Below, piece after piece: positions 24,438-44,152 of a stretch of DNA of 64,000 bases. The position numbers and the translations under genes were made by a program. Where the stretch lies: positions 2,290,501 through 2,354,500 of the forward strand of contig NZ_CP086106.1 of the NCBI RefSeq assembly GCF_016765655.2, in the 5' to 3' direction. This stretch comes from Skermanella mucosa (GTDB lineage Bacteria; Pseudomonadota; Alphaproteobacteria; Azospirillales; Azospirillaceae). A model generated the notes under the pieces. The model ran no database searches, was not told the DNA's origin, and saw only the letters and a program-made list of their open reading frames with translations. Each line of letters begins with the position of its first letter. Position 1 is the stretch's first letter.

Positions 24438-24903
24438 TCGGGCTCTTACACTCGATCACCACGACGGGGATGCCGTTGAGATGGATCACCACATCAGGGA
24501 TGCGAGTCACCTCGGCCTTGACGCGGAACTGGTGAGTAACCGTCAGGACATTGTTGGTGAGAGTGCGGAAATCGATTACGCGAAGGGTTCGCCGTGTAGC
24601 CTCACCCTGAATGGGGCGACTGAAGTTGCCTCGCAGAATGGATAACCACGCCTCGTTGCTGGACACCGACACGAGGTCAGCGTAGGCCGCCTGGGCGTCG
24701 GCCTCAGACACACCATTGATCCGTTTGATGGCAGCCACGACATGGGGGCGGAACAGCACCTGATTATCGCCGTCGCGGAGGTCTGCATGGTCCTCCGGTG
24801 GCACGAAGCAGTAACCCATGGCCTCAAGGCAGACGATAGTCGGCTGTTCGACAAGATGCCATTCCATGCCCTGGGCCACAACTGTCTCTCCTCTTCTCGT
24901 GCC

Positions 24904-27682: not shown

Positions 27683-27937
27683 GTGTCTGCCGTTGGCCTC
27701 AGGCGTGATAGAGGCGGCAATCTATCAGAAGAAGTACAGCAGGTAACTCACTGAAGTGCCTTACCTGGTAGAAGTTTTTTTGGGACTGACGATCGACGCG
27801 GGTCCCCTCTGGTCCATTGACGGAATCGTCTTACTGGCTGAGGACTTAACGTCGACACCGGGCAGCAACCTGGTGCACAGACGCATTCAGAAGATGCACG
27901 AAAACCGTGCCAAAACCCTCGCACCACCTGCATTCTG

Positions 27938-28318
27938 GTTGAATCTAGTGTCAGCGTCAGTGCACTCGACATTAACGGCAAAACCCTGACCTCGACCCAG
28001 GAATGGTACATCGACAGCCTTATGGGCTCCATGACTAAAACGTTCATCAAGATCGATGCCCGTGACGGCGTCTTCCTCGTTGCCAGCGACAAGGCCGGTA
28101 GTGCGACGGCAATCACGAAGAACGAATCGGACGCATAGTCCAGGGTCAGCAGCATCGTTTTGAGCCAGAGTGGAGCCACAGAGATCGGCGGCTCGGGCGT
28201 CCTCTCGGGTCCTGTCGGCACGTCCCTCTACATTAGGTTGGATGCCTTGTACCTCCTCTTGGGTGGCGGCACCCCAACCGGTGTTGTGACGCTGTCACTC
28301 CTGGCTCTTCAAAGCTAA
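27938..28318 (+). pseudogene. Decayed reading frame with internal amber codon
   Basis: One plus-strand frame reads VESSVSVSALDINGKTLTST...FLVASDKAGSATAITKNESDA, then TAG at 28136-28138, then continues in the same frame as SRVSSIVLSQSGATEIGGSG...PTGVVTLSLLALQS to TAA. The composition (Ser/Thr/Gly-rich, beta-type) suggests a structural or surface protein, but no family is recognised. No start codon or ribosome-binding site is evident, and the beginning is lost. Confidence 0.4.
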
Positions 28319-28411
28319 GAGTTGCGACAGACGAAAATCCGCGACCTGGGATGTCTTTTCCCTCATACGATCAGATCTGGGCTCACCACCTCCAACTATT
28401 GAGTTGTGGAG

Positions 28412-29128
28412 TCACTCCTTTCGACGAGGAGTCAGGCTGCGTTTGGTGCTGTGCAACTGTCGCAATTTTCTAAATTCCTTCCCTTTCCCAACGCTGTCGG
28501 CGATTCGCAGCAGCTGACTCTCGTGAAAGGGGGTCGGCTTGCCGTTCCTTCCGCGTGCGTGGTAGCCTCGTATTTGAAGTGCTGTAGAGATACTTCCGAG
28601 CACCGTGGCTTCGCCAGAACAAACAATGTCTTTCATCGCATCGTATATCTTCTTATCTCTTTCACGAGATTTCAGACTGAGCGGCCGGCTCTCCTCAAAG
28701 CCTCGTAGTGCCTGCTTCAGCTTGTACTTCCCAACTGCGGCAAGCGACGCAATTTCTTCAGTGTTGATGTGTATGTAATCGTCAACATACGGGTCGGTGA
28801 GCGATTGCTCATCGATTCTAAAAATTTCTTCCATGATGTCATCAATGAAGGCAAGCTTAATCCAGAAATCTAAGAAATCATCAAAGAGGTCGTATTGGCC
28901 GCGTATTGCGTCATAAGACTCAACAAGAACCAAGTCAACGATACCAAACCTCTCAAGAGCTATACCTAACGTTGGATGCTGAAATACTTCGGCAAGTGAG
29001 AGTTCGCCGATCAACCGGTACCGCGACCCTCGCTTGATGATATCCAGGTTCTCGGACAGCTTGTCTCGCCGCCCCTCCTCTGACTTAACACCTTGTAAAA
29101 GAACGGCATTTCGAATTTCCATTGACAA
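28412..29128 (-). CDS. Hypothetical protein (about 238 aa), AT-rich
   Basis: Unrecognised soluble protein, lower in GC than surrounding backbone genes and so probably acquired. It is rich in acidic helices (FDDFLDFWIKLAFIDDIMEE). The last 60 residues (ISTALQIRGYHARGRNGKPT followed by FHESQLLRIADSV) resemble the helix-turn-helix tail of large serine recombinases, so DNA binding is possible. It is divergent from the DUF5131 gene, whose promoter region it shares. The start ATG is either residue 1 or residue 3. Confidence 0.6.
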   Translation of the reverse strand: MSMEIRNAVLLQGVKSEEGRRDKLSENLDIIKRGSRYRLIGELSLAEVFQHPTLGIALERFGIVDLVLVESYDAIRGQYDLFDDFLDFWIKLAFIDDIMEEIFRIDEQSLTDPYVDDYIHINTEEIASLAAVGKYKLKQALRGFEESRPLSLKSRERDKKIYDAMKDIVCSGEATVLGSISTALQIRGYHARGRNGKPTPFHESQLLRIADSVGKGKEFRKLRQLHSTKRSLTPRRKE

Positions 29129-29271
29129 CTCCCCCCTCTGTCAATTGTCTGCTGTGGCACCGGAAACTTCTCAGCGGCATTATATCTTCGTCAGTGGCCA
29201 CTGCATATCGCCAACTTACCGCAACATGGCAAATACTCACAACGTGTGCGAATATGGGGAGAAGTACAAGA

Positions 29272-30993
29272 ATGAATACTTTCACGAATGATAGTCAGTC
29301 TACGCTCCAAGCCGACGAGGACCACGCTCAACAGCACGCAGAGCAAGAGCAAACTGTTTCCGGAAACAGTTCAGCGGATGAAGATGCATCAGCGGAAGCC
29401 GATTCGGGCTTCACAGATCTGGAAGCGGGTGTTCTCGAGCACGTTGACGAAGTGCAACTCCTGATCGGTGATATGGATAGGCATCGATTAGCCGGCCGAA
29501 CTATGAAATTGGATTTCGAAAGCCGAATGGCCGTCATCGCAACCAAATTCGCTCCACTGTACGCACGGATCTCAGCTATGCCACCGCAGGAGCGACGAGC
29601 ATTTCTTTCAACTCCTGCGAAGCTGGGAGGTGTCGAGAAGAAGTGGCCCGATGCCCGAGCGATAGACCCTTATGCCGTGATGATGGTCCACAAATACCTT
29701 TTTGATGGCAAAGAGAATAGAAAGGGAGCGATTAAAGTCCTGTGCAACAGAATTGGATATACGGCAGCGGCTTTGGCGGAGATTGGAAAATTCAATTTCG
29801 ATGACGCTTACAATTATGTGGTAAAAAACGGAATGTGCGGAAGAGTTTCTCTTGATTATACGGCCAGGAAAAGGAACAAATATGAAGTTGGGCTGTCAGT
29901 TCTGGATTCGAAACCTGTACAGTTCTCATTTAGTATTCCGGAGGATGATGGATTCCCTCCTGGATCTTACAGGGCGTTTCTAGTTCGAAAAGCTGAAGAG
30001 GCTGGATACCACTTGATCGATGATCTCGCTCCGGATGAGAAATTGCTGGGCCAGATAATTGAGCGGTACTATTCTTATGCTGACAAGCCTGAGACTGAGC
30101 ACGGAGAACCGCCTCCCGAAGATCCAGACATACGAACAGTTACCTCGCAGAGACTGAGCATAGAATGGACCGGCAATCGTCGTGTTAATCCCTCGGGCGG
30201 ATGCTCCAATGCCGATGCTGATTGCGATAACTGTTACGCTCGATCTTTTTCGGCTCGCCAGCAGGGTATGGGAAGGATGAAGTATGAAGGAACAACTAGA
30301 ACGGGCAATAATGGTCGGCTCGAGTGGACCGGAAGACTTAACTGGGACAGCAAAGCCGCACGGCAGCCGCTCCACTGGGGAAAGGGGCAGCTTATCTTTG
30401 TAAACTCAATGAGCGATCTGGGACACCCTGGGATCAAGCCAGAAAATTTCGCTGAGATGCTCGATGTCATCGAGCAAACGGCAGACAGGCATGTGTACCA
30501 GGTCCTGACCAAGCGTCCCAACGTCGTGGCGAAGCGGCTCAAGGTTCTCGGTCGCTCCTGGCCGGATAATGCATGGCTTGGCACATCGGTGGGCGTCAGG
30601 AAAGGCCTCCATCGCATCGCTGCACTCCAAGAGATCGATGCCAAACGGTTCCTGTCGCTGGAGCCGCTGATCGAGGATGTCGGAGACCTCAATCTCACGG
30701 GCATCGATTGGGTCATTGCTGGCGGAGAATCTGGGCAATCTCGAATTCGGAAGCCAGAGCCCGATTGGCTTAGGAACCTTCGGGATCAGTGCCTAAGTGG
30801 TGAAATCCCGTTTTTCTTCAAACAATGGGGAGACTGGAAATTCAACCCTCTGACGAGGGAGTACGGATTGGCGAAGGCCAAATCGATGGAAGAGGAGGTC
30901 GGGGATGCCAACAGCCATGGCGGAGCCCTGCTTGATGAGCGGCTCTGGCGAGAGATGCCAGAAAAGATGGCCGAAGTCCTCCGCAGTTCTTAA
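29272..30993 (+). CDS. DUF5131 (phage Gp37/Gp68-like) protein with extra N-terminal domain
   Basis: 574 aa. The C-terminal half is a DUF5131 domain: cysteines in GGCSNADADCDNCYA (CX6CX2C, near residue 310), LIFVNSMSDLGH, HVYQVLTKRPNVVAKRL, DNAWLGTSVG, RFLSLEPL, IDWVIAGGESG and PFFFKQWGDW. The three-cysteine cluster resembles a radical-SAM-type iron-sulfur site; the activity is unknown. Residues 1-290 are an added, unrecognised module with an acidic, Gln/Glu-rich start. The ATG at 29272 follows GGGGAGAAG. DUF5131 genes are common in phages and mobile islands. A serine recombinase lies just downstream. Confidence 0.82.
   Translation: MNTFTNDSQSTLQADEDHAQQHAEQEQTVSGNSSADEDASAEADSGFTDLEAGVLEHVDEVQLLIGDMDRHRLAGRTMKLDFESRMAVIATKFAPLYARISAMPPQERRAFLSTPAKLGGVEKKWPDARAIDPYAVMMVHKYLFDGKENRKGAIKVLCNRIGYTAAALAEIGKFNFDDAYNYVVKNGMCGRVSLDYTARKRNKYEVGLSVLDSKPVQFSFSIPEDDGFPPGSYRAFLVRKAEEAGYHLIDDLAPDEKLLGQIIERYYSYADKPETEHGEPPPEDPDIRTVTSQRLSIEWTGNRRVNPSGGCSNADADCDNCYARSFSARQQGMGRMKYEGTTRTGNNGRLEWTGRLNWDSKAARQPLHWGKGQLIFVNSMSDLGHPGIKPENFAEMLDVIEQTADRHVYQVLTKRPNVVAKRLKVLGRSWPDNAWLGTSVGVRKGLHRIAALQEIDAKRFLSLEPLIEDVGDLNLTGIDWVIAGGESGQSRIRKPEPDWLRNLRDQCLSGEIPFFFKQWGDWKFNPLTREYGLAKAKSMEEEVGDANSHGGALLDERLWREMPEKMAEVLRSS
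29352..29371. repeat. 20-bp perfect palindrome, copy 1
   Basis: AACTGTTTCCGGAAACAGTT reads identically on both strands. It lies inside the DUF5131 gene (codons about 27-33). A near-identical copy lies at 31021-31040, just past the end of that gene. Confidence 0.85.
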
Positions 30994-31020
30994 CCGGCAG
31001 GAGGGCAAGACCTAGCTCCG

Positions 31021-31040
31021 AACTGTTTCTGGAAACAGTT
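31021..31040. repeat. 20-bp palindrome, copy 2
   Basis: AACTGTTTCTGGAAACAGTT differs from copy 1 by a single base in the centre. It lies 27 nt after the DUF5131 stop codon and about 200 nt before the serine recombinase. It could be a protein-binding site, a recombination half-site pair or a terminator-like hairpin. Confidence 0.85.
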
Positions 31041-31241
31041 TTCGGCACTGGTGGGGAGGTGGCGAGAGCCACTTCCCCTGCTTGCTCCCTTGACACTCCT
31101 CCTGTGGCGGATGTCCCAAAACCCCCTCCGCCAACCGGGTCCCCAGCGTCGCATATTTCCTGGCTTCCGGAGCCTCTTCTGCGGTGTCCCACAACCACCC
31201 GGTTAGTTGACAGCGGCTGGGCCTGTGCGACGGTGATCGGC

Positions 31242-31856
31242 ATGAAGAAGGTCGCCATATACGCCAGGGTGTCGACGGATCGGCACCAGACAGTCGAGAA
31301 CCAACTCGTCGCTCTCCAGGCGATGGGCGAGCGGTTGGGTTGGGTCGTCGTGGCCGTCCATGTCGATGAGGGGATCAGCGGTGCGAAGGGTCGGGAGCAG
31401 AGACCAGGGTTTGACGCCCTGCTGAAGGGGGTGGCACGCCGGGAGTTCGACCTGATCGCGGCGTGGAGCGTGGACCGACTCGGCCAGTCGCTCCAGGATC
31501 TCGTGGGTTTTCTGGCCGACATCCAAGCCCGCGGGATTGATCTCTACCTGCACCGGCAGGGCCTCGACACCTCGACACCGTCGGGCCGAATGATGTTCCA
31601 ACTGCTGGGGGTGTTCGCCGAGTTCGAACGATCGATGATCCGGGAGCGGGTCATGGCCGGGCTCGACCGGGCTCGTAGTCAGGGTCGCCGCATCGGTCGA
31701 CCGCCGATGCCGGCGGGCAAGCTTGAGAGCGTCCGGCAGGCCCTGGCCGGCGGTGCCGGCGTGCGGCAGGTGGCCCGGTTGACCGGCGTCAGTCCGACAG
31801 CGGTCTCGCGGGTCAGGCAGTCCATGGTCGCCGAGAGCCAGTCCGGCACAGTCTGA
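31242..31856 (+). CDS. Serine recombinase (resolvase/invertase)
   Basis: 204 aa, complete. Catalytic Ser in MKKVAIYARVSTDRHQTVEN; the family signatures DLIAAWSVDRLGQSLQDLV and MMFQLLGVFAEFERSMIRER are present; the C-terminal helix-turn-helix is GVRQVARLTGVSPTAVSRVR. It resembles Pin/Hin or Tn3-type resolvases. The frame is open from 31059, but the family starts at MKKVAIYARV (31242). The last codons form the left arm of the 26-bp inverted repeat. It may act on sites nearby. Confidence 0.93.
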   Translation: MKKVAIYARVSTDRHQTVENQLVALQAMGERLGWVVVAVHVDEGISGAKGREQRPGFDALLKGVARREFDLIAAWSVDRLGQSLQDLVGFLADIQARGIDLYLHRQGLDTSTPSGRMMFQLLGVFAEFERSMIRERVMAGLDRARSQGRRIGRPPMPAGKLESVRQALAGGAGVRQVARLTGVSPTAVSRVRQSMVAESQSGTV

Positions 31857-31887
31857 GCCCAAGACTGTGCCGGACTGGCTCTCGGCG
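31829..31887. repeat. 26-bp perfect inverted repeat at recombinase 3' end
   Basis: The left arm (31829-31854) starts CGCCGAGAGCC and covers the final codons of the recombinase. The right arm (31862-31887) is its exact reverse complement. The loop is 7 nt (GAGCCCA). No T-tract follows, so it is not a textbook terminator. Such a long perfect stem is rare by chance. Confidence 0.85.
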
Positions 31888-31934
31888 GGTAAATACCGGG
31901 ACGCACCTCGGCGTCGCCCGTCACGGAGTTCAGC

Positions 31935-32156
31935 ATGCGAGCCCACGAGTTCATTAGCAAACGACGCAGCCATCGTCATGAGCACGTCGCAGTCCTCTAC
32001 CTTGATCCGACTGACTGGAACCGGTTCCGAGCCTTCGCCCAGGATCGTGATGATGTCGTTATCCTTGACGCCAAGCCGGATGCAGATCGGATTGCTGTCC
32101 AGTGCGGCTGCCAGTCGGTTGAGATCTGCGACCGGCTGCAGGATGCCTGGAACTGA
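31935..32156 (+). CDS. Small hypothetical protein (73 aa), uncertain
   Basis: Starts MRAHEFISKRRSHRHEHVAV and ends CDRLQDAWN. GGAG lies 6 nt before the ATG and GC3 is moderately high. The opposite strand (from 32183 leftwards) also reads plausibly (VKDNDIITILGEGSEPVPVS) but has no good ribosome-binding site and runs into the antisense of the recombinase. Only one strand is likely real; I favour the plus strand slightly. Confidence 0.4.
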   Translation: MRAHEFISKRRSHRHEHVAVLYLDPTDWNRFRAFAQDRDDVVILDAKPDADRIAVQCGCQSVEICDRLQDAWN

Positions 32157-32193
32157 CGCTGGGATCGGTTTTGTCCTGAGCATGCCTGTTGGT

Positions 32194-32228
32194 TGCTCCA
32201 GCCGGCGCCGCAGGCGCCGGCTGGAGCA
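32194..32228. terminator. 16-bp perfect hairpin downstream of minus-strand gene
   Basis: TGCTCCAGCCGGCGCC and its exact complement are separated by a 3-nt loop (GCA). It begins 6 nt beyond the stop of the gene at 32234-32743, so a terminator for that gene is likely. No T-tract is present. Confidence 0.6.
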
Positions 32229-32233
32229 TGACC

Positions 32234-32743
32234 TCAGTCCTGCGGGAACTCGAAGCCGATCTTCCCACCGGGCACGCAGTGCCAGCGAAGTCTGGCAAGG
32301 GTAAGCACCGCCAGGTCGTCACACCCTACGATGAAGGTGCGATAGCAGTTTCCTCCCGACCACCATACCCGACCCGGAGCAATGCTGTATTGACCAGGAA
32401 CGCGTCCGGCCGACGACGAGAGCTTGTCGATCCAGCAGGTCCGGACATCGATTCTGGTGATATGGGATCGGCTTTCGACCTCCGTCCGCAATGCCGTGTT
32501 CTCTGCGTCCACGACAGCCTTGTGCTTGTGCATAGTGAGCAGATGTCTGAGAAGCTTAACGTCCATGGTAAACAACCTTTCTATGTGTTTCGAACCGTAG
32601 CCATCCGCTGCGGTAAGGGTAATTTGAAGCATCTGATCAGGGAGAAGCAAAATTACTGTTTGGTCAGATGAGTACTTTTCTGCGATTTCGCTAATGTGGT
32701 GGGTAAATGACTTTGACGTGATTGACGTCAGAGGGGCATTCAC
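32234..32743 (-). CDS. Hypothetical protein (169 aa)
   Basis: Not recognised. Reads as MNAPLTSITSKSFTHHISEI, with a middle segment LLRHLLTMHKHKAVVDAENT and a C-terminal beta-like part (RTFIVGCDDLAVLTLARLRW). No signal peptide or membrane helix. An internal ATG (MDVKLLRHLL) is an alternative start. It lies between the inverted repeats and IS256 copy 2, in an island-like setting. Confidence 0.5.
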   Translation of the reverse strand: MNAPLTSITSKSFTHHISEIAEKYSSDQTVILLLPDQMLQITLTAADGYGSKHIERLFTMDVKLLRHLLTMHKHKAVVDAENTALRTEVESRSHITRIDVRTCWIDKLSSSAGRVPGQYSIAPGRVWWSGGNCYRTFIVGCDDLAVLTLARLRWHCVPGGKIGFEFPQD

Positions 32744-32793
32744 TCGGGAGGTGGCGGTGAAGGTCGAGTGAGTGCTTGGTCGCTCAGTGGCGG

Positions 32794-34114
32794 GGGACTA
32801 TCGGGAATTTCGTGCTTGGCGGGGTTATCCTGAAACAGAAGGAGACCCTGAATGGCCCGACGCAAAGATCCTGTTATCCCTGACGCGATCCTTGACCAGC
32901 TGCTGGCTGGAGCCGATGCGAAGACGGCATTCGACCAGAACGGCCTGCTCGACCAGCTGAAGAAGGCGCTGACGGAGCGGGCGCTGAAGGCGGAGCTGGA
33001 TCATCATCTGGCTGGAGATGAGAGCGGCAACCGTCGCAACGGTTACGGCCACAAGACGGTGCTGACCGATGGCGGCTCGATGGGTCTGTCCATTCCCCGC
33101 GATCGGTCGGGGACGTTCGATCCGGCGCTGATCGGCAAATACCAGCGGCGCTTCCCCGGCTTCGACGAGAAGATCATCTCAATGTACGCACGCGGCATGT
33201 CAACCCGGGAGATCACGGGACACCTGCGGGAGCTCTATGGCATCGAGGTGTCGGCCGACCTGATCTCCACGGTGACGGACGCCGTGATCGAGGAGGTGAC
33301 GGCCTGGCAGAACCGGCCGCTGGAGGCGATCTACCCCCTGGTGTTCCTGGATGCCATCCGGGTCAAGATCCGCGACGAAGGTCTGGTCCGCAACAAGGCC
33401 ATCCATGTCGCCATCGGCGTGCGGGCCGACGGCGCCAAGGAGGTGCTGGGCCTGTGGATCGAACAGAACGAGGGCGCCAAGTTCTGGCTGCGCGTCCTGA
33501 ACGAGTTGAAGAACCGGGGTGTGGAGGACATCCTGCTGGCCGTCGTCGATGGGCTGAAAGGCTTTCCCGAGGCGATCGCGGCTGCCTATCCGGAGACGAT
33601 TGTTCAGACTTGCGTCGTTCATCTGCTGCGCCACAGCATGGAGTTCGCGTCCTGGAAGGACCGCAAGGCCATCGCCGCCGCCCTGAAGACGGTCTACGAC
33701 GCTGTCGACGACAAGGCCGCCGAGATGGCTCTGAGCGCCTTTGAGACCGGGCCTTGGGGCGAAAAATACGCGGCCATCGGCAAGGCTTGGCGGCGGGCGT
33801 GGCCGGAGGTCATCCCCTTCTTTGCCTTCCCGCGCGAGGTCCGGCGCATCCTTTACACGACCAATGCCATTGAAGCGTTGAACTCAAAGCTGCGCCGGGC
33901 GGTCCGGGCCAGGGGGCATTTCCCCAATGACGAGGCCGCGCTGAAGCTCCTGTTTCTCGTCTTGAACCGCGCGGAGAAAGACTGGAAGATGCCGCCCCGG
34001 GAATGGACGGCCGCCAAAGCCCAGATGGCTGTCATCTTCGGCGACCGGTTCGCAAAGGCGATGACCGCCTGATACTGAACCCGCCCCGCCAAGCACGGAA
34101 TTCCCGACAGTCCC
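32794..34114 (+). mobile_element. IS256-family insertion sequence, copy 2 (in vapE-like gene)
   Basis: Same 1,321-bp element as copy 1, in opposite orientation, with the same terminal repeats (GGGACTATCGGG left, right end complementary to GGGACTGTCGGG). The flanks do not match: AGTGGCGG on the left, CGGGAAGG on the right, so there is no target duplication. On the right it cuts a VapE-like gene, and the missing half of that gene is not on the left. This points to a deletion or rearrangement next to the element. Confidence 0.95.
32852..34072 (+). CDS. IS256-family transposase, copy 2
   Basis: 406 aa, identical in amino-acid sequence to the transposase of copy 1, with the same candidate DDE residues (VFLDAIRVK, AVVDGLKGF, TTNAIEALNSK). 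Intact start and ribosome-binding site (AGGAGACCC). Two intact identical copies imply recent transposition. Confidence 0.96.
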   Translation: MARRKDPVIPDAILDQLLAGADAKTAFDQNGLLDQLKKALTERALKAELDHHLAGDESGNRRNGYGHKTVLTDGGSMGLSIPRDRSGTFDPALIGKYQRRFPGFDEKIISMYARGMSTREITGHLRELYGIEVSADLISTVTDAVIEEVTAWQNRPLEAIYPLVFLDAIRVKIRDEGLVRNKAIHVAIGVRADGAKEVLGLWIEQNEGAKFWLRVLNELKNRGVEDILLAVVDGLKGFPEAIAAAYPETIVQTCVVHLLRHSMEFASWKDRKAIAAALKTVYDAVDDKAAEMALSAFETGPWGEKYAAIGKAWRRAWPEVIPFFAFPREVRRILYTTNAIEALNSKLRRAVRARGHFPNDEAALKLLFLVLNRAEKDWKMPPREWTAAKAQMAVIFGDRFAKAMTA

Positions 34115-35075
34115 CGGGAAGGCTGCCCAGGACCTCACTGTGTCGGTCGTCGGCCAGCTTGGCGAAGTCGCTGTCCACCCAGGCGTCGCCGAGCGGCGAC
34201 AGGAACCGCTTGACCATCTCGGTCTTGCCGCCACCCTGCTGGCCGATGATCACCGGCATCATGTGATTGCCGACCGTCATACCCCGGATCTTCCGGCCGA
34301 CCTGCCAGATGAAGTGCTGGAGGACAGCCTTGACCAGGTGATGATCCTGGTCGTAGTCGGCCAGCACAGCCTGGAGGAACAGGTCCCACTGCTGGTCTGT
34401 CTCGGCGTGCTCATCTTCCTGAATGCCGCCGCCCACTTTGTCAGCGAGCCAGAACAGGATCTCCGCCCGCTTCTGCACCACCCATTCGTTCCAAGCCCGC
34501 TCAATGCCGGCCTCGGTGAAGCCGAGCTTGTGATCCTCGTTGAAGATCTTCATCTGATCGACGACCCGCCTCACGTCGATCTCCCGCGGACTCCAGATTT
34601 CGTTGAAGCGGTCGAGGTACTCGTCGTCGGTCTCCTGGAGGCGGACTTCGCTACCGTCCGCCCGGATCAACACCCGCTTGGTAACCCGGACCCTGTCCTT
34701 GAGCGTCGGCTCCAAGCCAAACTGATCGGTGTAGGCCCGAATGAATTCAGCAAGGCTCGTCGGGAAAAATCCCAGAACCTCGGCGACCTTGGCCCTGGCG
34801 ATCTTTCGCTTGGTCAGGTTGACGTTCAGGCCGACCTCACCCTTCAAGAACTCCGCGACGACATCAACATCGTCGGGGCTCAGGTTCTCGACCGGGAGCC
34901 GGGCCAGTACGGTGTCGGCGAAGTTGGCAGGGGCTGCACGGTCCAGGGCCGTTGTACCCAGGCGAATCTCCTCGAGGATACCGACAACATCCGGCTGTCC
35001 AGCGAACTTGGTGACAAGGCTCATTCCATAACCCTCATTCAGTCGGGGCTCGATTGCCGCGACGAGGGTCACCAT
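34115..35075 (-). pseudogene. VapE-like (virulence-associated E) ATPase, 3' end lost
   Basis: The N-terminal about 320 residues remain. The P-loop is in VIIGQQGGGKTEMVKRFLSP and is followed by AWVDSDFAKLADDRHSEVL, as in VapE-family phage/island replication ATPases. The frame then runs into IS256 copy 2 and stops at 34032. ATG 35075 follows TGAGGA; MSLVTKFAG at 35024 is an alternative start. VapE genes typically sit in prophages and phage satellites, near an integrase, as here. Confidence 0.75.
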
Positions 35076-35427
35076 GAACAATCCTCACCCCGCGGGTCCA
35101 AATTGCAGGAACACCCCCGGAAAAATCAAAAACGGGAATAATGAGCCAAGGAACATGGTCTGATAGAATGGCGAGTTGGCCCAGCCATTTCGGCAATCCA
35201 AATCTGCCGCGACACAAAGCTTGGCTCAGTATAGTAGGCGGCAGACAATAGCACTGTCCTCAGCAGCCAAGGCCCTCACATGCCCCTCCTCGGCTCCACC
35301 AAACCGGACTCCGACTGGTATGTTCTAGGGCCGATCCAAAGCGGAACCAGTGGTCAGATTGACAGCGGCTCGGTCTATGGGACCGTCCTGCATGGACAAC
35401 TGGATTTGCCGGTGCAGGAGGATCTAC
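35076..35427. other. Spacer between vapE-like gene and integrase
   Basis: Divergent promoter region. I could not find a convincing excisionase-type small gene or repeat. The right end carries the integrase ribosome-binding site. Confidence 0.35.
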
Positions 35428-36450
35428 GTGGCAGCGGTTTACAAGCGGGGGCGGACATGGTGGGTCCGGTTTACATGGCACGGACAGGAGGTCCGAAGGT
35501 CAGCCCGAACCTCGTCGAAAGTTGTGGCTCAGCAGTATCTTGCTCAACTGGTTGAGGAACGCCGACGGCTGGACCGAGGCGGCCGTCCCCGTCACACCTT
35601 TGATGAGGCTGTCGAGCGATTTATCGGCGAGCACCTTCCATCGCTCAAACCTCTAGCTGCCCGCCGATACCTCTTCAGCCTAAAGATGTTGAACCCGCAC
35701 TTCGTCGGGGCCTATCTGGATGAGGTCACGAAGACGAAGATCCTAGCCTATGTCAGCTTCCGGAGAAAACAGGGCATATCGCCATCAACAATCAGACGCG
35801 ACCTGGCTTGCCTCTCATCGATGCTGCAACTCGCTATCTCATGGGAGTGGGTTGATGCAAATCCGATCCGGACCCTGGACCGGCGACTCTTGAAGGAAGG
35901 AGACCCTCGAAGACGCTACCTGAGCCATGAGGAGCAGGAACGGCTTCTCGTTGCGGCGGGGTCTTATCTCAAGCCGATGGTCGGGTTCGCTATCGAAACC
36001 GGTCTTCGCCTGGAGGAGCAACTGTCTCTGGAGTGGTCACAGGTCAACCAGCGGCGTCACGAACTCACTCTCACCAAAACCAAGACCAGCAATCCAAGGG
36101 TGGTCCCCCTCACCGATCAGGCCGCACAGATCCTGGCACAGCAGCCACGACATCTGACCTCGCCCTACGTGTTCTGCAAACCAGATGGATCACGGTACCT
36201 CAGGCTAACTCGTGGGCTGGATGGGGCCGCATCGCGGGCTGGGATAAGCGATCTTCGATGGCATGATCTCCGCCGAACCTGTGGCTGCCGCCTCCTACAG
36301 GACTACGGTATGGACCTATACCGGGTCAGCAAGTGGTTGGGGCACAAGTCGGTTGCCATGACCGAAAGGGCCTACGCCTTCCTCAGAGTCGACGACCTGC
36401 ATGCGGTGATCCGCCCCGGTACAAAGGTCGGCACAGGGAACGCGGATTGA
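35428..36450 (+). CDS. int: Tyrosine recombinase / integrase
   Basis: 340 aa. The N-terminal SAM-like core-binding domain (HTFDEAVERFIGEHLPSLKP) precedes a catalytic domain with Arg in IETGLRLEEQLSLEW, HDLRRTCG (His-x-x-Arg), LGHKSVAMTERAYAF (His and the Tyr nucleophile). GTG 35428 is chosen because AGGAGG lies 8 nt upstream and the product starts VAAVYKRGRTWWVRF, the usual family beginning. It faces a tRNA-Met gene about 70 nt away, the typical position of an island integrase. Confidence 0.92.
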   Translation: MAAVYKRGRTWWVRFTWHGQEVRRSARTSSKVVAQQYLAQLVEERRRLDRGGRPRHTFDEAVERFIGEHLPSLKPLAARRYLFSLKMLNPHFVGAYLDEVTKTKILAYVSFRRKQGISPSTIRRDLACLSSMLQLAISWEWVDANPIRTLDRRLLKEGDPRRRYLSHEEQERLLVAAGSYLKPMVGFAIETGLRLEEQLSLEWSQVNQRRHELTLTKTKTSNPRVVPLTDQAAQILAQQPRHLTSPYVFCKPDGSRYLRLTRGLDGAASRAGISDLRWHDLRRTCGCRLLQDYGMDLYRVSKWLGHKSVAMTERAYAFLRVDDLHAVIRPGTKVGTGNAD

Positions 36451-36477
36451 TCGCCGGACGACTGGCCCGCCAAACGA

Positions 36478-36514
36478 AAAACCCCTGCCAAGTGCTTGAC
36501 TTGGCAGGGGTTTT
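36478..36514. terminator. Bidirectional intrinsic terminator
   Basis: Stem arms AAAACCCCTGCCAAG and CTTGGCAGGGGTTTT (15 bp perfect) around a 7-nt loop. The T-tract on the plus strand ends integrase transcripts; the A-tract on the left serves the minus-strand tRNA transcript. Confidence 0.9.
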
Positions 36515-36517
36515 AAC

Positions 36518-36594
36518 TGGTAGCGGAGGAGGGATTTGAACCCCCGACACAAGGATTATGATTCCTCTGCTCTGACCAACTGAGCTACTCCGCC
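36518..36594 (-). tRNA. tRNA-Met (CAT anticodon), encoded CCA
   Basis: 77-nt cloverleaf. Acceptor GGCGGAG pairs with CTCCGCT and is followed by ACCA. D arm GCTC...GAGC. Anticodon stem GAGGA/TCCTT with loop ATCATAA (anticodon CAT). T arm GGGGGTTCGAATCCCTC. Sequence style matches alphaproteobacterial elongator tRNA-Met; tRNA-Ile2 (CAT, lysidine-modified) is the less likely alternative. Its 3' end points to the integrase, so it is a candidate attachment site. Confidence 0.93.
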
Positions 36595-38639: not shown

Positions 38640-40142
38640 ATGGCCAGCATGGACGCGATAGACCGCTCCGAACCCGACCACTCTCGACCGTCCTCATCCA
38701 TGCCACCGGCCTCGTCGGCACGTACCCGGCCGGTACCGCTGTGCGTGGACATGGACGGCACGCTGCTCAACACGGACAGCCTGATCGAGTGCTTTTTCGC
38801 CCTGATCAAGGACTGGCGCGTGCTGTTCGCCATGGTCGGCTGGCTCCTGAAGGGCAAGGCGCACCTCAAGCAGCAACTGGCGCTCCATGCCCGGCTCGAC
38901 CCTACATTGCTACCTTACAACACCGGGCTGGTCACCTGGCTGCACGAGCAGAAGCGGCTCGGCCGGCGGCTGATCCTGGCGACCGCGGCGGACCACATTA
39001 TCGCCGACGCCGTCGCGCGCCACCTCGGGATCTTCGACGAGGTCATCGCCTCCGACGGGCTCAACAACCTGCGGGGATCGGCCAAGGCCGAGGCGATCGA
39101 CCGGCACCTCGAAGGCCAGCCCTACGCCTATGCCGGCAACGACTTCTCCGACCTGGAGATCTGGCGGCACGCCGATTCCGCCGTCCTGGTCAACGCGCCC
39201 AAGAGCGTGTGCAAGGCGGCGGCGGAAATCACCCATATCGAAGCCCATGTGGACGACCGCGCCCCCTGGACACGCGCCTTGCTCAAGGCGCTGCGGCCCC
39301 ATCAGTGGGTCAAGAACGTCCTGGTCTTCGTGCCCATCGTCACCGCCAGCGCGCTGTTCGATCTCTCGGCCTGGGGCGATGCGCTGCTGATGTTCCTGGC
39401 CTTCTGCTGCACCGCCTCGGCCATCTACATGATCAACGACCTGACCGACCTCGCATCGGACCGGCAGCACCACCGCAAGCGCAACCGCCCCTTCGCCAGC
39501 GGCGCGCTGCCGCTCTACCACGGTCCGATCTTGGCGCCCGGGCTGCTTCTGCTGGGCGGGTCGCTGGCCGCCGCCGCCGGCGCCTTCACCGTCGTGGTGC
39601 TGTACGCCGTCTGCTCGATCCTTTACTCGTTCAAGCTGAAGAGCCTGGCGCTGGTCGATCTGTTCATGCTGGCGGCCCTCTACACCATCCGGCTGTTCGG
39701 CGGCGGCGAGGCATCGGGCTATCCGGTCTCGCTCTGGCTGCTGGGCTTCTCCAGCTTCGTCTTCCTCAGCCTCGCCATCGTCAAGCGCGTCGCCGAACTG
39801 ATGGCCTTGCCACCGGAAAACGGAGGTAAGCCGGCGGGACGGGGGTATCGCGCCGGGGACATGGATATCCTGCGCCTGATGGGCGTCGCCTCTTCCTTCA
39901 CCTCGTGCCTGGTGCTCGCCCTCTACGTCCAGTCCGACCTGGCGCTGGGCCTCAACACGATGGATGCGCTCTACTGGGCGATCGTGCCGCTGATGCTGTT
40001 CTGGCAATGCCGCATCTGGCTCGCCACCTCGCGCGGCAAGATGCACGACGACCCCATCGTGTTCGCCGCCAAGGACCCCGTGTCGTGGCTCGTCTGCGGC
40101 GCCGTCTTCGCCATCGTCGCCATCGCCCATCTGCCCGTATAG
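38640..40142 (+). CDS. HAD phosphatase - UbiA prenyltransferase fusion (DPPR synthase-like)
   Basis: 500 aa. Residues about 30-210 are a HAD domain: nucleophile CVDMDGTLLNTDS, ILATAADH, YAGNDFSDLEIW. Residues about 220-500 are a membrane UbiA domain with INDLTDLASDRQHH (NDxxDxxxD) and the second motif YSFKLKSLALVD, with about eight hydrophobic helices. The UbiA part matches decaprenyl-phosphate phosphoribose synthases that add phosphoribose to a polyprenyl phosphate; the HAD part could remove the 5-phosphate. Genes for a flippase-like protein, DprE1- and DprE2-like enzymes follow, giving the decaprenylphosphoryl-arabinose route. Confidence 0.88.
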   Translation: MASMDAIDRSEPDHSRPSSSMPPASSARTRPVPLCVDMDGTLLNTDSLIECFFALIKDWRVLFAMVGWLLKGKAHLKQQLALHARLDPTLLPYNTGLVTWLHEQKRLGRRLILATAADHIIADAVARHLGIFDEVIASDGLNNLRGSAKAEAIDRHLEGQPYAYAGNDFSDLEIWRHADSAVLVNAPKSVCKAAAEITHIEAHVDDRAPWTRALLKALRPHQWVKNVLVFVPIVTASALFDLSAWGDALLMFLAFCCTASAIYMINDLTDLASDRQHHRKRNRPFASGALPLYHGPILAPGLLLLGGSLAAAAGAFTVVVLYAVCSILYSFKLKSLALVDLFMLAALYTIRLFGGGEASGYPVSLWLLGFSSFVFLSLAIVKRVAELMALPPENGGKPAGRGYRAGDMDILRLMGVASSFTSCLVLALYVQSDLALGLNTMDALYWAIVPLMLFWQCRIWLATSRGKMHDDPIVFAAKDPVSWLVCGAVFAIVAIAHLPV

Positions 40143-40149
40143 AGGAATC

Positions 40150-41184
40150 GTGACCACTCACCGAATCCCATCCCAGCCGGGCGCGTCCACGGGATCCCGC
40201 TCCATGATGCGGCGGGCGGAGTACGGCGCGGTCATCACCGCCGTGGTCTTCGTCGCGGCCATGTCCGCCGCCGGCATCTGGTTCGGCCTGGACGAGGTCT
40301 GGCACCGCATGTGGGCGCTCAGCCCCGCCGTCTTCGCCGGGCTGCTGCTCCTGTCGCTGGCCAACTATGCCCTGCGGGCATGGCGCTGGCACCTGTTCGG
40401 CCATCATCTCGGCATCGACGTTCCGGCGGGACGCACCGGGCTCTACTACGTCGCCGGCTTCGCCATGACCACCACTCCGGGCAAGGTGGGGGAGGCGCTG
40501 CGCCTCTGGCTCCTGGAGCGATGCCACGGCTACCGATACGAGCGCACCGCCCCGCTGCTGATCGGCGACCGCATCAGCGACGCCGTCGCGATCACCCTGC
40601 TGTGCCTGACGGGGCTGTCGGCGTTCGGTGCCGCCTACGGCACCGGCACCCTGGTGGCAGCCGCGGCGCTGGCAGGGGGGCTCCTGATGCTGCTCCGTCC
40701 GCAGATACCCTTGCGCGCGGTGCTGCTGGCCTATGGCCTGGTCGGGCGCTGGCCGCGCCTGTTCGGCGGGGCGCGTACCGTCGTGCGCAAGACCTCGCGC
40801 CTGCTCGATCCCCGTATCTTCGCCCTGACCTCAGCGATCGGGGTGGTCGGCTGGCTGTGCGAGGCCTTCGCGCTGCATTGGCTTCTGATCGACCTGGGCG
40901 CCCAGGTCACGCTTCAGCAGTCGATCTTCGTGTTCGCCTTCGCCATGCTGGTCGGCGCCGTCTCCATGCTGCCGGGCGGGCTCGGCGGCACCGAGGCGAC
41001 CATGTTCGCTCTGCTCACCCTGCTCGGCGTGCCCGCCGACACGGCGCTGGCGGCGACCTTGATCATCCGGCTGACCACGCTATGGTTCGCCGTCGGGCTG
41101 GGGTTCGTGGCCCTGCCGGTGGCGCTGAAGCTGGCCCGCCAACCCGCGGCGGAGCGTCTGGCGACCGCCGACGGAATCAGGTGA
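40150..41184 (+). CDS. LPG synthase-like / UPF0104 membrane protein
   Basis: 344 aa with about eight hydrophobic helices. Family signatures: LSLANYALRAWRWHLFGHHL, GKVGEALRLWLLERCHGYRY, RISDAVAITLLCLTG, and SMLPGGLGGTEATMFALLTL. Members of this superfamily are often flippases or accessory proteins in lipid-linked sugar pathways. GTG start with GAGGAATC upstream, 7 nt after the previous stop. In this cluster it may move the lipid-linked pentose across the inner membrane (inference). Confidence 0.85.
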   Translation: MTTHRIPSQPGASTGSRSMMRRAEYGAVITAVVFVAAMSAAGIWFGLDEVWHRMWALSPAVFAGLLLLSLANYALRAWRWHLFGHHLGIDVPAGRTGLYYVAGFAMTTTPGKVGEALRLWLLERCHGYRYERTAPLLIGDRISDAVAITLLCLTGLSAFGAAYGTGTLVAAAALAGGLLMLLRPQIPLRAVLLAYGLVGRWPRLFGGARTVVRKTSRLLDPRIFALTSAIGVVGWLCEAFALHWLLIDLGAQVTLQQSIFVFAFAMLVGAVSMLPGGLGGTEATMFALLTLLGVPADTALAATLIIRLTTLWFAVGLGFVALPVALKLARQPAAERLATADGIR

Positions 41185-41196
41185 GTTCTTGATATC

Positions 41197-42546
41197 ATGA
41201 CTTGGAAGACGATGACCCTGACCGGCTGGGGCCGCACCCGCCGGTCCGAAGCCGCCGCCTGCCGGCCGGAGCGCGCTCCGGCCGCGGCGCGGGTGCTTCA
41301 GGACCGGTTCGAGCGCGGCATCCTGGCCCGCGGCCTGGGCCGCAGCTACGGCGACGCCTCCCTGAACGGCGGCGGCAACGTCCTGCTGACGGAGCGGCTG
41401 AACCGCATGGTCTCGTTCGATCCGGACGATGGCACCCTGGTGTGCGAGGCCGGCGTCAGTTTCGACGACCTGCTCACCGCCTTCCTGCCCCGGGGCTTCA
41501 TGCCGCCGACCTCGCCGGGAACATCCTTCGCCACCGTCGGGGGCGCCGTCGCCAACGACGTCCACGGCAAGAACCACGACCGCGTCGGCAGCTTCGGCGA
41601 CCATGTGCTGTGGCTGGACCTGATCCTTCCCACGGGCGAACAGGTCCGCATCTCGCCGGACGAGCGGCCCGACCTGTTCGCCGCCACCGTCGGCGGTGTC
41701 GGGCTGACCGGCGTGATCCTCCATGTCTGCTTCCGCCTGCGCCGGGTCGCCTCCGCCTCGGTCGAGGTGCGGGAGCGGCGGATGCCCGATCTCGACGCCT
41801 TCATGGCCGGGCTGGCCGAGGCGCGGGAGACCGCAGGATACAGCGTCGGCTGGATCGACGGCATGGCGCGCGGGGCCGACATGGGCCGCGGCATCCTGGA
41901 GACGGCGGAGACCGCCCCCGCCGACCCGGCCGGCGCCGCCCCGAAGCCGCCCAGGAAGCGGGCGGTGCCGGTCGATCTCCCCGGATTCGCGCTCAATCCG
42001 TTCAGCATCAACCTGTTCAACCAGGCCTATTACCGGCGCGTCCCGGCCGCCGGGCGGACCCGCACCCTGCCGGTGCGGCAGTTCCTCTACCCGCTCGACG
42101 CCATCCACGACTGGAACCGGATCTACGGCAAGCGAGGCTTCTACCAGTTCCAGAACGTGGTCCCCGACGCCGAGGCGCCGGCCGCCCTGCGCAAGCTGCT
42201 GGAGGCCATTTCCGACGCCCGGGCCGGCTCCTTCCTGGCGGTGCTGAAGACCCTGGGCGGCGAGGGCAGGGGGCACCTGTCCTTCCCGATGCGGGGCTAC
42301 ACCCTGGCGCTCGACTTCCCCCGGCGCGACGGCGTGGAGGACCTGCTGGCCCGCCTCGCCGCGATCACCCTGGACCACGGGGGCCGGGTCTATCTCGCCA
42401 AGGACGCCGTGCTCGACCCCGCCGGCTTCGCCCGCATGTACCCGAAACTGGGAGAGTTCCGCCAAGTGCTCGACCGCATCGATCCCGACCGGCGGATCCA
42501 GTCCGACCTCTCGCGCCGCCTGGACATCCGGGGAGAGAAGTCATGA
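41197..42546 (+). CDS. dprE1: DprE1-like FAD-dependent oxidase
   Basis: 449 aa. A vanillyl-alcohol-oxidase-type FAD domain (RGLGRSYGDASLNGGGNVLL, SPGTSFATVGGAVANDVHGK with the HGKNH motif) is followed by an ALO-type C-terminus (KDAVLDPAGFARMYPKLGEF). DprE1 oxidises decaprenylphosphoryl-ribose at C2. The Cys that benzothiazinones modify in mycobacteria (in NxCVDFP-type context) aligns with Ala here (YTLALDFP). Its stop overlaps the next start (ATGA). Confidence 0.9.
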   Translation: MTWKTMTLTGWGRTRRSEAAACRPERAPAAARVLQDRFERGILARGLGRSYGDASLNGGGNVLLTERLNRMVSFDPDDGTLVCEAGVSFDDLLTAFLPRGFMPPTSPGTSFATVGGAVANDVHGKNHDRVGSFGDHVLWLDLILPTGEQVRISPDERPDLFAATVGGVGLTGVILHVCFRLRRVASASVEVRERRMPDLDAFMAGLAEARETAGYSVGWIDGMARGADMGRGILETAETAPADPAGAAPKPPRKRAVPVDLPGFALNPFSINLFNQAYYRRVPAAGRTRTLPVRQFLYPLDAIHDWNRIYGKRGFYQFQNVVPDAEAPAALRKLLEAISDARAGSFLAVLKTLGGEGRGHLSFPMRGYTLALDFPRRDGVEDLLARLAAITLDHGGRVYLAKDAVLDPAGFARMYPKLGEFRQVLDRIDPDRRIQSDLSRRLDIRGEKS

Positions 42547-43298
42547 ATGCCCCGACCTGGCTGGTGCTCGGCGCCTCCTCTTCGATCGCCCGAGCCTTCG
42601 CGCTGGAAGCGGCGGCCCAGGGCAGCAACGTTATCCTGGCCGGGCGCGACCGCGCCGACCTGGACCGCGGCGCCGCCGACGTCCGCATCCGCCACGATGT
42701 CGCGGTCGAGGTGGTTGACTTCGACGCGGAAGTGGTGGATACCCATGATGTATTCGTCAAAGATGTGACCGGTTTGTCGGCGGGCTTCGGCACCGGACCG
42801 TTGAACGTCTTCCTGGCCTTCGGCTTGATGCCGGACCAGTCCGCCATCGACGCCGACCCGGACAAGGCCCAGAGCACCATCATGGCCACATATGCCGGCG
42901 CGGTCTCGGTCCTGCACCGCTTGGCCCCGATCCTGGAGGCGCAGGGAAAGGGCCATATTGTGGCGCTCGGCTCGGTCGCGGGCGACCGCGGGCGGATCAA
43001 GAACTATGTCTACGGCTCCGCGAAGGCAGGGCTGCACGCTTATCTCCAGGGGTTGCGCAACCGCCTGTTCCGCTCCGGCGTGACGGTCACCACCGTCAAG
43101 CCGGGTTTCATCGACACCACCATGACCTGGGGAATGCCGGGGCTGTTCCTGGTCGCCTCGCCGCAGGACTGCGCCCGCGCCTGCCTGCGCTACGCCGCCA
43201 AGGGGGCGGAGGTCCGCTACTTCCCGGCCTTCTGGTGGATCATCATGACGATCATCCGCTCGATCCCGGAACCGATCTTCAAGCGCCTGAGCATTTAG
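42543..43298 (+). CDS. dprE2: DprE2-like short-chain dehydrogenase
   Basis: 251 aa. Rossmann SDR: LVLGASSSIARAFALEAAAQ, catalytic Ser in IVALGSVAGDRG and Tyr-x3-Lys in NYVYGSAKAGLHAYL; C-terminal hydrophobic segment FFPAFWWIIMTIIRSIP-like. It reduces the 2-keto intermediate made by DprE1 to give decaprenylphosphoryl-arabinose. Translationally coupled to dprE1 through ATGA. Its stop overlaps the stop of the convergent fkbM gene by 3 nt. Confidence 0.9.
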   Translation: MNAPTWLVLGASSSIARAFALEAAAQGSNVILAGRDRADLDRGAADVRIRHDVAVEVVDFDAEVVDTHDVFVKDVTGLSAGFGTGPLNVFLAFGLMPDQSAIDADPDKAQSTIMATYAGAVSVLHRLAPILEAQGKGHIVALGSVAGDRGRIKNYVYGSAKAGLHAYLQGLRNRLFRSGVTVTTVKPGFIDTTMTWGMPGLFLVASPQDCARACLRYAAKGAEVRYFPAFWWIIMTIIRSIPEPIFKRLSI

Positions 43299-44152
43299 AC
43301 CCCCTGCGGAGCGGCGGCGTCCCGCCGCCCTACGGCCCGCTCCGGCACCCCGGGATCGCGGGTCGCCAGAACGTTCAGGCACTCGCCGAAACCCGCGGTT
43401 TCGTCCCGCAAGGCACCGTCAGGACCCACGACATGGCAGGCGAAGCCGTGCCCGCGCAGCCGGTCCAGGATCTCGCCGGCGCCGTAGCCGTATCGGGCGG
43501 AGTTCTCGTCGAACAGCTCGATGTAGACATTTGATGACACGGACAGCACCTGAGCGGCGCCGTCCAGCACGAACTTCTCGAAGCCCTCGACATCGATCTT
43601 CAGCAGGTCGATCCGCTCCAGGCCGCCCAGCAGTGCGTCGAGCGTCGTCAGCTCGACCGTCGCCCCGTCGCCGTCCGCCGACACGAAGTTCATGTCGTCC
43701 GCGCGCCGCTGTGAGATCCGGATCGTCCCCGGCTCCGCCCCGACCGCCACGTTATGGATGGTCACCTGATCGAAGCCGTTCAGCCGCATGTTCTCCCGCA
43801 GGAAGCCCGCGATGGTCGGGTTCGCCTCGATCGCGTGGACCGTGCCGCCGGGACCGACCCTAGCCGCGGCCGCCGCCGCCAGAGTCCCGACATTGGCGCC
43901 GACATCCACGTATGTCGCTCCGGGGCCGAGCAGGCGGGTGACGATCCGCTCGTCCGCCGCCCGCGATTCCGGGTCGATCCAGTAGGCGCAGGAGACCGAC
44001 GACGGGAAGAAGCGCAGCCGGTAGCCGTCCTTCGGGATGGTGAAGTGGCGGCACAGCCCGGTCTGCCACAGCAGCCGACCCGCCAGGTTGCGGACGGGCC
44101 TGTCGCCCCGGACCAGTTCGGCCAATCGGCCGGCGTAGCGGGAGAGAGCCAT
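43295..44152 (-). CDS. FkbM-family methyltransferase
   Basis: 285 aa. SAM-binding Rossmann region: ATYVDVGANVGTLAAAAAAR and HAIEANPTIAGFLRENMRLN; LLKIDVEGFEKFVLDGA is the FkbM signature. These enzymes O-methylate sugars or polyketides. It lies 7 nt after tamB and convergent to dprE2; a role in modifying the same glycan is possible but not shown. Confidence 0.9.
   Translation of the reverse strand: MALSRYAGRLAELVRGDRPVRNLAGRLLWQTGLCRHFTIPKDGYRLRFFPSSVSCAYWIDPESRAADERIVTRLLGPGATYVDVGANVGTLAAAAAARVGPGGTVHAIEANPTIAGFLRENMRLNGFDQVTIHNVAVGAEPGTIRISQRRADDMNFVSADGDGATVELTTLDALLGGLERIDLLKIDVEGFEKFVLDGAAQVLSVSSNVYIELFDENSARYGYGAGEILDRLRGHGFACHVVGPDGALRDETAGFGECLNVLATRDPGVPERAVGRRDAAAPQGV

What the first reader, a model, noticed from the sequence alone, without database searches (positions are those of the whole stretch)
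38640..43298. DPA-type arabinose pathway in an alphaproteobacterium with a HAD-UbiA fusion
Four genes in one run: UbiA (DPPR synthase-like), flippase-like, DprE1-like and DprE2-like. In mycobacteria the dephosphorylation step is a separate enzyme; here a HAD phosphatase domain is fused ahead of the UbiA domain and could do it. Similar genes (noe genes) in Azorhizobium serve arabinosylation of Nod factors, so a decorated glycan is likely.
Basis: partly seen in the sequence, partly recalled or inferred. Interest (0 to 1): 0.6.

Follow-up and report, generated by a model that had tools for sequence, protein, structure and literature searches.

The report
Lipid-linked D-arabinose operon in Skermanella

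Summary
Confirmed: four nearly touching same-strand genes at 38640-43298 encode a HAD-UbiA fusion, a PF03706 flippase-like protein, a DprE1 homologue and a DprE2 homologue. Replicon sizes identify the host as Skermanella mucosa. Both active sites of the fusion are intact. The fusion type is known: NCBIfam models it (PRK08238), and a Citrobacter HAD-UbiA protein was shown in 2024 to make farnesyl-P-ribofuranose, its HAD nucleophile removing the 5-phosphate (PMC11127046).

Follow-up added three things. (1) The operon is mosaic: its UbiA belongs to the HAD-UbiA clade, its DprE1 to a clade often served by stand-alone UbiA. (2) Near DprE1, PF03706 and GtrA (a proposed donor-flippase family) almost never co-occur (33 and 25 of 120 loci, 1 both), suggesting PF03706 is the donor flippase. 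(3) In four sister genera PF03706 lies beside a GT-C protein, a GT87 protein and DUF4185, a family proven to be endo-D-arabinanases. S. mucosa keeps the two transferase candidates on a plasmid; DUF4185 was not found. The likeliest product is an envelope D-arabinan or D-Araf decoration. Every reaction in Skermanella remains inferred.

The parts
38640..40142 (+). HAD-UbiA fusion protein (500 aa): predicted bifunctional polyprenyl-phosphate 5-phosphoribosyltransferase plus 5-phosphatase
   Evidence: PRK08238/NF006088 568 bits, cut-off 351; PF01040 and PF12710 over cut-off; AF2 model pLDDT 88, pTM 0.83; UbiA half matches Rv3806c 8j8j, TM 0.82 by target, HAD half matches SerB phosphatases
38748..39152 (+). 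HAD phosphatase domain (residues 37-171) with D37, D39, T115, K149, D171
   Evidence: PF12710 33.9 bits, cut-off 27; D37, D39, K149 and D171 kept in 51-52 of 53 fusions, position 115 is T or S in 50 of 53
39273..39998 (+). UbiA / phosphoribosyltransferase domain (about residues 212-453) with N266, D267, D270, D274, K334, D340, R383, E386
   Evidence: the NDxxDxxxD residues correspond to ORF15 N247, D248, D251, D255, needed for activity in Citrobacter (PMC11127046)
40150..41184 (+). PF03706 (LPG_synthase_TM / flippase-like) protein, 344 aa: predicted flippase of the lipid-linked arabinose
   Evidence: PF03706 165 bits, TIGR00374 82 bits; near DprE1 it almost excludes GtrA
41197..42546 (+). DprE1-like FAD oxidase, 449 aa
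   Evidence: NF053785 431 bits (cut-off 500, not reached); Mtb DprE1 E=5.8e-81; K402, K351, Q317, Q319 match Mtb K418, K367, Q334, Q336; Mtb C387 is A371 here
42543..43298 (+). DprE2-like SDR reductase, 251 aa
   Evidence: PRK07102 264.7 bits (cut-off 267), DprE2 model 184.8 bits (cut-off 250); Mtb DprE2 chain 21gq_C E=7.4e-30, catalytic Y-x-x-x-K (YGSAK) present
43295..44152 (-). FkbM-family methyltransferase, convergent and overlapping the DprE2 stop; possibly but not demonstrably related
   Evidence: PF05050 64 bits; an orthologue lies in the same place in two other genomes of the genus

Best explanation
The operon makes and exports a polyprenyl-phosphate-linked D-arabinofuranose donor. The UbiA domain transfers 5-phosphoribose from PRPP to polyprenyl phosphate (probably undecaprenyl). 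The fused HAD domain removes the 5-phosphate. The DprE1-like oxidase and DprE2-like reductase invert C2 to give polyprenyl-P-D-Araf. The PF03706 protein flips it to the periplasm. GT-C enzymes there, most likely the GT87 protein and its 544-aa GT-C neighbour on replicon C2, put Araf onto an envelope glycan. Shown here: gene content, conserved catalytic residues, family assignments, synteny and trees. Shown elsewhere for relatives: HAD-UbiA activity (Citrobacter ORF15), DprE1/E2 activity (mycobacteria), DUF4185 endo-D-arabinanase activity. Inferred: every reaction in Skermanella, the flippase role, the transferases and the glycan.
For: Homology and residues. AF2 model and structural matches. 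ORF15 precedent including the D18A mutant that accumulates the 5-phosphate product. Kelly et al. report DprE1/E2 homologues in Araf-containing loci. HAD-UbiA and DprE1 are kept together in 5 of 5 genus genomes. HAD-UbiA and stand-alone UbiA interchange in front of the same DprE1/E2 clade. PF03706 and GtrA almost exclude each other: 33 versus 25 of 120 loci, 1 with both, Fisher p=0.0015. PF03706 stays with the GT-C, GT87 and DUF4185 genes even where DprE1/E2 lie elsewhere (L262, L263). GT87 orthologues occur in 7 of 82 family genomes, all with DprE1; the four strong DUF4185 genes are in four of those seven. GT87-HAD-UbiA proteins of about 960-1015 aa in Azospirillum-type genomes physically join the synthase to a GT-C.
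Against: The DprE1 and DprE2 proteins score below NCBIfam's curated cut-offs for the mycobacterial-type enzymes. The proposed GT87 gene is missing from two genus genomes that carry the operon (G363, G366), so another transferase must act there or the assignment is wrong. Across the class, distant relatives of the 544-aa protein do not track DprE1 (one of 16, the window genome itself). DUF4185 was not found in any Skermanella genome searched. No sugar analysis of Skermanella was found.
Confidence: 0.75

Rival explanations
1. The HAD domain is not the required phosphatase: it is slow, redundant or regulatory, and a general phosphatase elsewhere dephosphorylates the lipid.
For: Sister operons with stand-alone UbiA, PF03706, DprE1 and DprE2 contain no phosphatase gene, so something else can do the job. 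Citrobacter D18A kept some activity, and a noeN deletion only reduced arabinosylation (PMC5080398).
Against: The HAD catalytic residues are conserved in 51-52 of 53 fusions, which redundancy alone would not preserve. D18A accumulated the 5-phosphate product.
Confidence: 0.12
2. The pathway stops at, or mainly delivers, ribofuranose or another pentofuranose; the oxidase/reductase pair does not make D-arabinose.
For: Both epimerase proteins fall below curated cut-offs. HAD-UbiA occurs without DprE1 in many genomes, for example the GT87-HAD-UbiA proteins of Azospirillum-type genomes without DprE1, where ribose is the natural guess.
Against: DprE1 and DprE2 are adjacent, each finds its mycobacterial counterpart as best solved match, and active-site residues are kept. 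A DUF4185 endo-D-arabinanase homologue sits beside the operon in sister genera.
Confidence: 0.1
3. The PF03706 protein is not the donor flippase but an unrelated lipid transporter, such as a phosphatidylglycerol-derivative flippase; GtrA or a MATE protein elsewhere does the flipping.
For: PF03706 includes MprF and glucosaminyl-PG flippase domains. Many DprE1 loci have neither PF03706 nor GtrA nearby.
Against: It sits inside the operon at the slot where other HAD-UbiA operons carry GtrA, and it co-locates with the transferase genes when DprE1/E2 are elsewhere. GtrA and PF03706 almost never co-occur, although the sample is not phylogenetically independent.
Confidence: 0.3
4. The sugar goes onto a small secreted or protein target, like the Nod factors of Azorhizobium or pilins of Pseudomonas, rather than a polysaccharide.
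For: Both are known uses of homologous pathways (PMC2443382, PMC5080398, PMC11127046).
Against: The linked genes in sister genera are GT-C, GT87 and an endo-D-arabinanase family, fitting oligo- or polymeric arabinan. noeP- or nod-type genes were not searched in this genome.
Confidence: 0.2

Closest known systems
Citrobacter youngae O1 ORF15 (HAD-PRP + UbiA-PPPRS) three-component pentofuranose system (PMC11127046)
   Same: Same domain order, HAD then UbiA; same catalytic residues; lipid-linked pentofuranose donor for extracytoplasmic transfer.
   Different: There a MATE flippase and a GT136 transferase are in the same locus and O1 has no epimerase; here the flippase candidate is PF03706, DprE1/E2 are present and the transferase is not in the operon.
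Mycobacterial DPA pathway (Rv3806c, Rv3807c, DprE1, DprE2, Rv3789)
   Same: Same chemistry predicted step by step; UbiA, DprE1 and DprE2 homologous.
   Different: A separate phosphatase of another family (Rv3807c) and a different flippase candidate (Rv3789); Mtb DprE1 C387, target of covalent benzothiazinones (own knowledge), is alanine here.
Azorhizobium/Rhizobium noeC(N)HOP operon
   Same: UbiA-, DprE1- and DprE2-type genes make a D-arabinose donor.
   Different: Nod-factor target; separate phosphatase candidate NoeN and transferase NoeP; no such genes are in this operon.
NCBIfam NF006088 / PRK08238 'UbiA family prenyltransferase'
   Same: The window protein scores 568 bits against a cut-off of 351.
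   Different: The model's name gives no specific function; the activity comes from the Citrobacter work.

Membership tests
HAD-UbiA fusion family (PRK08238) | Full-length match over curated cut-off | tested here: met
   568 bits vs 351
HAD-UbiA fusion family (PRK08238) | Intact HAD motifs I-IV and UbiA Asp-rich motifs | tested here: met
   D37, D39, T115, K149, D171; N266, D267, D270, D274, K334, D340
Polyprenyl phosphoribosyltransferase (PPPRS/DPPRS) | Fold and nearest solved relative is Rv3806c | tested here: met
   phmmer E=6e-26; Foldseek rank 1 8j8j, TM by target 0.82
Polyprenyl phosphoribosyltransferase (PPPRS/DPPRS) | PRPP-dependent activity | not testable with these tools
   shown only for relatives
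DprE1 | NCBIfam DprE1 equivalog cut-off | tested here: not met
   431.4 bits vs 500
DprE1 | FAD domain and active-site Lys/Gln residues | tested here: met
   PF01565; K402, K351, Q317, Q319
DprE2 | NCBIfam DprE2 equivalog cut-off | tested here: not met
   184.8 bits vs 250
DprE2 | SDR YxxxK catalytic motif and best solved match to DprE2 | tested here: met
   YGSAK; 21gq_C E=7.4e-30
Three-component pentofuranose system (Kelly 2024) | Synthase, flippase and GT-C encoded together | tested here: not met
   No GT-C in the operon; a GT-C/GT87 pair is on another replicon, although sister genera do link them
Three-component pentofuranose system (Kelly 2024) | MATE flippase | tested here: not met
   PF03706 protein instead
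noe-type Nod factor arabinosylation | noeP arabinosyltransferase and nod genes | not tested
   none in the operon; genome not searched for nod or noeP

The most novel reading that the evidence does not exclude
Azospirillaceae and other alphaproteobacteria make a mycobacterium-like envelope D-arabinan with a distinct machinery: a HAD-UbiA donor synthase, a PF03706 protein as polyprenyl-P-arabinose flippase, a GT87 plus GT-C transferase pair, and in sister genera a GH183 endo-D-arabinanase. PF03706 would be a new flippase class for lipid-linked pentofuranoses.
Probability: 0.45. Interest if true: 0.6.

Novelty: new variant of a known kind. Interest (0 to 1): 0.42.

Why it matters
[quoted passage not shown] say so for the Rv3789-type and MATE proteins). 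A compact operon in a cultured, non-mycobacterial soil bacterium, with a PF03706 gene that seems to replace GtrA, makes that question open to simple genetics. The natural exchange of HAD-UbiA and stand-alone UbiA in front of the same DprE1/E2 clade suggests that both feed the same ribosyl intermediate. Alphaproteobacterial D-arabinans are real (Devosia submarina makes a polymer of 2- and 5-linked alpha-D-Araf, PMC8707391), and this gives candidate genes for such a polymer.

Tried and rejected
DUF7657 as the transferase: seen near one sister operon (L136), no match in the own genome, and the controls were silent, so inconclusive. Large neighbours of stand-alone-UbiA operons were acyl-CoA dehydrogenase, histidine kinase, class-III aminotransferase and release-factor genes: not phosphatases, rejected. 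Nesting of the window DprE1 strictly inside stand-alone-UbiA rows: supported in the careful tree (95/94), but a grouping with other HAD-UbiA rows of the same DprE1 clade is not rejected (p=0.175), so only 'interchange within this clade' is claimed. Class-wide profile of the 544-aa protein: no link to DprE1 outside the family. PMT_2 proteins elsewhere in the genome are weaker transferase candidates with no linkage. No sigma-70 promoter match and nothing above shuffle background for terminators in the operon.
Full report
WHAT IS THERE. Four genes run on the + strand at 38640-43298 with spacers of 7 nt, 12 nt and a 4-nt overlap: a HAD-UbiA fusion (500 aa), a PF03706 flippase-like membrane protein (344 aa), a DprE1-like FAD oxidase (449 aa) and a DprE2-like SDR (251 aa). 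Matches to solved M. tuberculosis proteins are strong: Rv3806c E=6e-26, DprE1 E=5.8e-81, DprE2 E=7.4e-30. The host is Skermanella mucosa 8-14-6: the genome held here has 7,840,710 bases with a 6,407,183-base contig, the sizes published for that strain. A genus mate's 529,001-base contig equals a Skermanella rosea plasmid. All five genomes of the genus examined carry the HAD-UbiA and DprE1 genes close together; the full gene set was confirmed in the two further neighbourhoods fetched.

IS THE FUSION FUNCTIONAL. All HAD motif residues (D37, D39, T115, K149, D171) and UbiA metal and substrate residues (N266, D267, D270, D274, K334, D340, R383, E386) are present and nearly invariant over 53 fusions, with T or S at 115. 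AlphaFold2 gives a confident model (pLDDT 88, pTM 0.83); its UbiA half best matches Rv3806c (TM 0.82 by target) and its HAD half matches SerB-type phosphoserine phosphatases.

IS THE FUSION NEW. No. NCBIfam has a dedicated model, PRK08238 (568 bits, cut-off 351). Kelly et al. 2024 (PMC11127046) showed that Citrobacter youngae ORF15, with the same HAD-UbiA order, converts farnesyl-P and PRPP to farnesyl-P-ribose, and that the HAD nucleophile mutant D18A accumulates the 5-phosphate, with some residual activity. They also report DprE1/E2 homologues in loci of Araf-containing glycans. Over-cut-off PRK08238 proteins occur in 15 of 289 sampled alphaproteobacteria, DprE1 relatives in 35 of 289.

A MOSAIC OPERON. 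I compared 120 DprE1 loci, drawn from the class sample, the family and 80 named or metagenome-assembled genomes, plus the window. In the UbiA tree the window protein lies in a 48-row clade (100) that contains all HAD fusions; joining it with the stand-alone UbiA of related operons is rejected (p-AU 5e-54). In the DprE1 tree the window lies in an alphaproteobacterial clade (99), next to operons with stand-alone UbiA and PF03706 (95/94 in the careful tree), and a grouping with the HAD-UbiA operons of the other DprE1 clade, most of them GtrA-type, is rejected (p 2.7e-4). Grouping with other HAD-UbiA rows inside the same DprE1 clade is not rejected (p 0.175). So HAD-UbiA and stand-alone UbiA have interchanged in front of this DprE1 clade, which fits the two delivering the same intermediate. 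The stand-alone-UbiA operons (for example L058, L067, L071) contain no phosphatase gene, so a phosphatase elsewhere must serve them; that is also the main reason not to call the HAD domain indispensable.

THE FLIPPASE SLOT. Many HAD-UbiA operons carry a small GtrA gene between the fusion and DprE1 (PF04138 confirmed in six loci). PF03706 and GtrA near DprE1 are almost mutually exclusive: 33 loci with PF03706, 25 with GtrA, one with both, of 120 (Fisher p=0.0015, not corrected for relatedness). The detection used home-made profiles and the named sample was chosen by likeness to the window's DprE1. GtrA-type proteins are the proposed flippases in three-component systems, so PF03706 is the natural candidate here; this is inference.

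THE TRANSFERASES AND THE PRODUCT. The window genome has a GT87 gene (PF09594, 110 bits) following, with a small overlap, a 544-aa membrane protein on its 669-kb replicon C2. The same pair (77% and 63% identical over the best stretches) lies beside the operon in Indioceanicola profundi (G341 = L135), where the order is 544-aa homologue, GT87, DUF4185, then convergent DprE2-DprE1-PF03706-HAD-UbiA. Two further genera keep PF03706 with these genes although DprE1/E2 lie on another contig (L262, L263), and a fourth links all of them with a stand-alone UbiA (L138). GT87 orthologues are in 7 of 82 family genomes, all seven with DprE1 (36 of 82; hypergeometric p=0.002), and the four strong DUF4185 genes are all in those seven (p=2e-5) (not corrected for relatedness). 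DUF4185 (GH183) proteins are experimentally endo-D-arabinofuranases (PMC10115798), and the L135 protein matches a solved endo-alpha-D-arabinanase (E=4e-11). The GT87 profile matches PimE (entry 9dm5). The 544-aa protein, modelled at modest confidence (pLDDT 66), best matches the GT-C enzymes ArnT and AftD, an arabinofuranosyltransferase. Limits: two Skermanella genomes with the operon lack this GT87, no Skermanella has a detected DUF4185, and remote relatives of the 544-aa protein elsewhere in the class do not track DprE1.

A RELATED SIDE FINDING. In many Azospirillum-type genomes without DprE1, HAD-UbiA matches lie in long open frames; in L143, L144 and L153 the gene is a single protein of 962-1015 aa, and in L143 Pfam finds an N-terminal GT87 domain followed by HAD and UbiA. 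In L153 an EamA/SMR-like gene follows. That joins the donor synthase directly to a GT-C.

VERDICT. Observation confirmed; mechanism well supported by precedent but not tested here; fusion already known. The new content is the PF03706 flippase candidate, the evidence for UbiA exchange, and a coherent candidate D-arabinan system in Azospirillaceae. My confidence is about 0.85 that the operon makes polyprenyl-P-D-Araf, about 0.85 that the HAD domain removes the 5-phosphate, about 0.6 that PF03706 is the flippase and about 0.5 that the C2 pair are the transferases.

Noticed in passing
L143:6711-9599 (+), L153:6694-9741 (+): Single proteins of about 962-1015 aa that join a GT87 GT-C domain to HAD and UbiA domains (Pfam-confirmed in L143), in Azospirillum-type genomes in which no DprE1 was detected: a donor synthase and its probable transferase in one chain.
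   Followed up: partly
L262, L263, L135, L138: DUF4185 (endo-D-arabinanase family) genes beside PF03706, GT87 and GT-C genes in four genera of Azospirillaceae.
   Followed up: partly
window 43295-44152 (-): FkbM-family methyltransferase convergent with and overlapping the end of the DprE2 gene, kept in the same place in two other Skermanella genomes; could modify the glycan.
   Followed up: no
window 20527-36594: Probable genomic island: type I restriction genes (HsdR-like 20527-22803, HsdS 24904-26151, HsdM 26126-27682), a Mutator-family transposase (32852-34072) and a phage-type integrase (35350-36450) next to tRNA-Met (36518-36594).
   Followed up: partly
window 59821-63070 (-): A KaiC-family ATPase gene directly next to a response-regulator gene in an alphaproteobacterium.
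   Followed up: no
window 41197-42546: The DprE1-like protein has alanine (A371) where Mtb DprE1 has C387, as do all 13 aligned proteobacterial sequences, so covalent benzothiazinones should not inactivate it.
   Followed up: partly
L053-L056, L066, L069: Stand-alone HAD proteins, 36-44% identical to the fused HAD domain, with no UbiA or DprE1 nearby in small alphaproteobacterial genomes; perhaps phosphoribose phosphatases of other ribofuranosyl systems.
   Followed up: no
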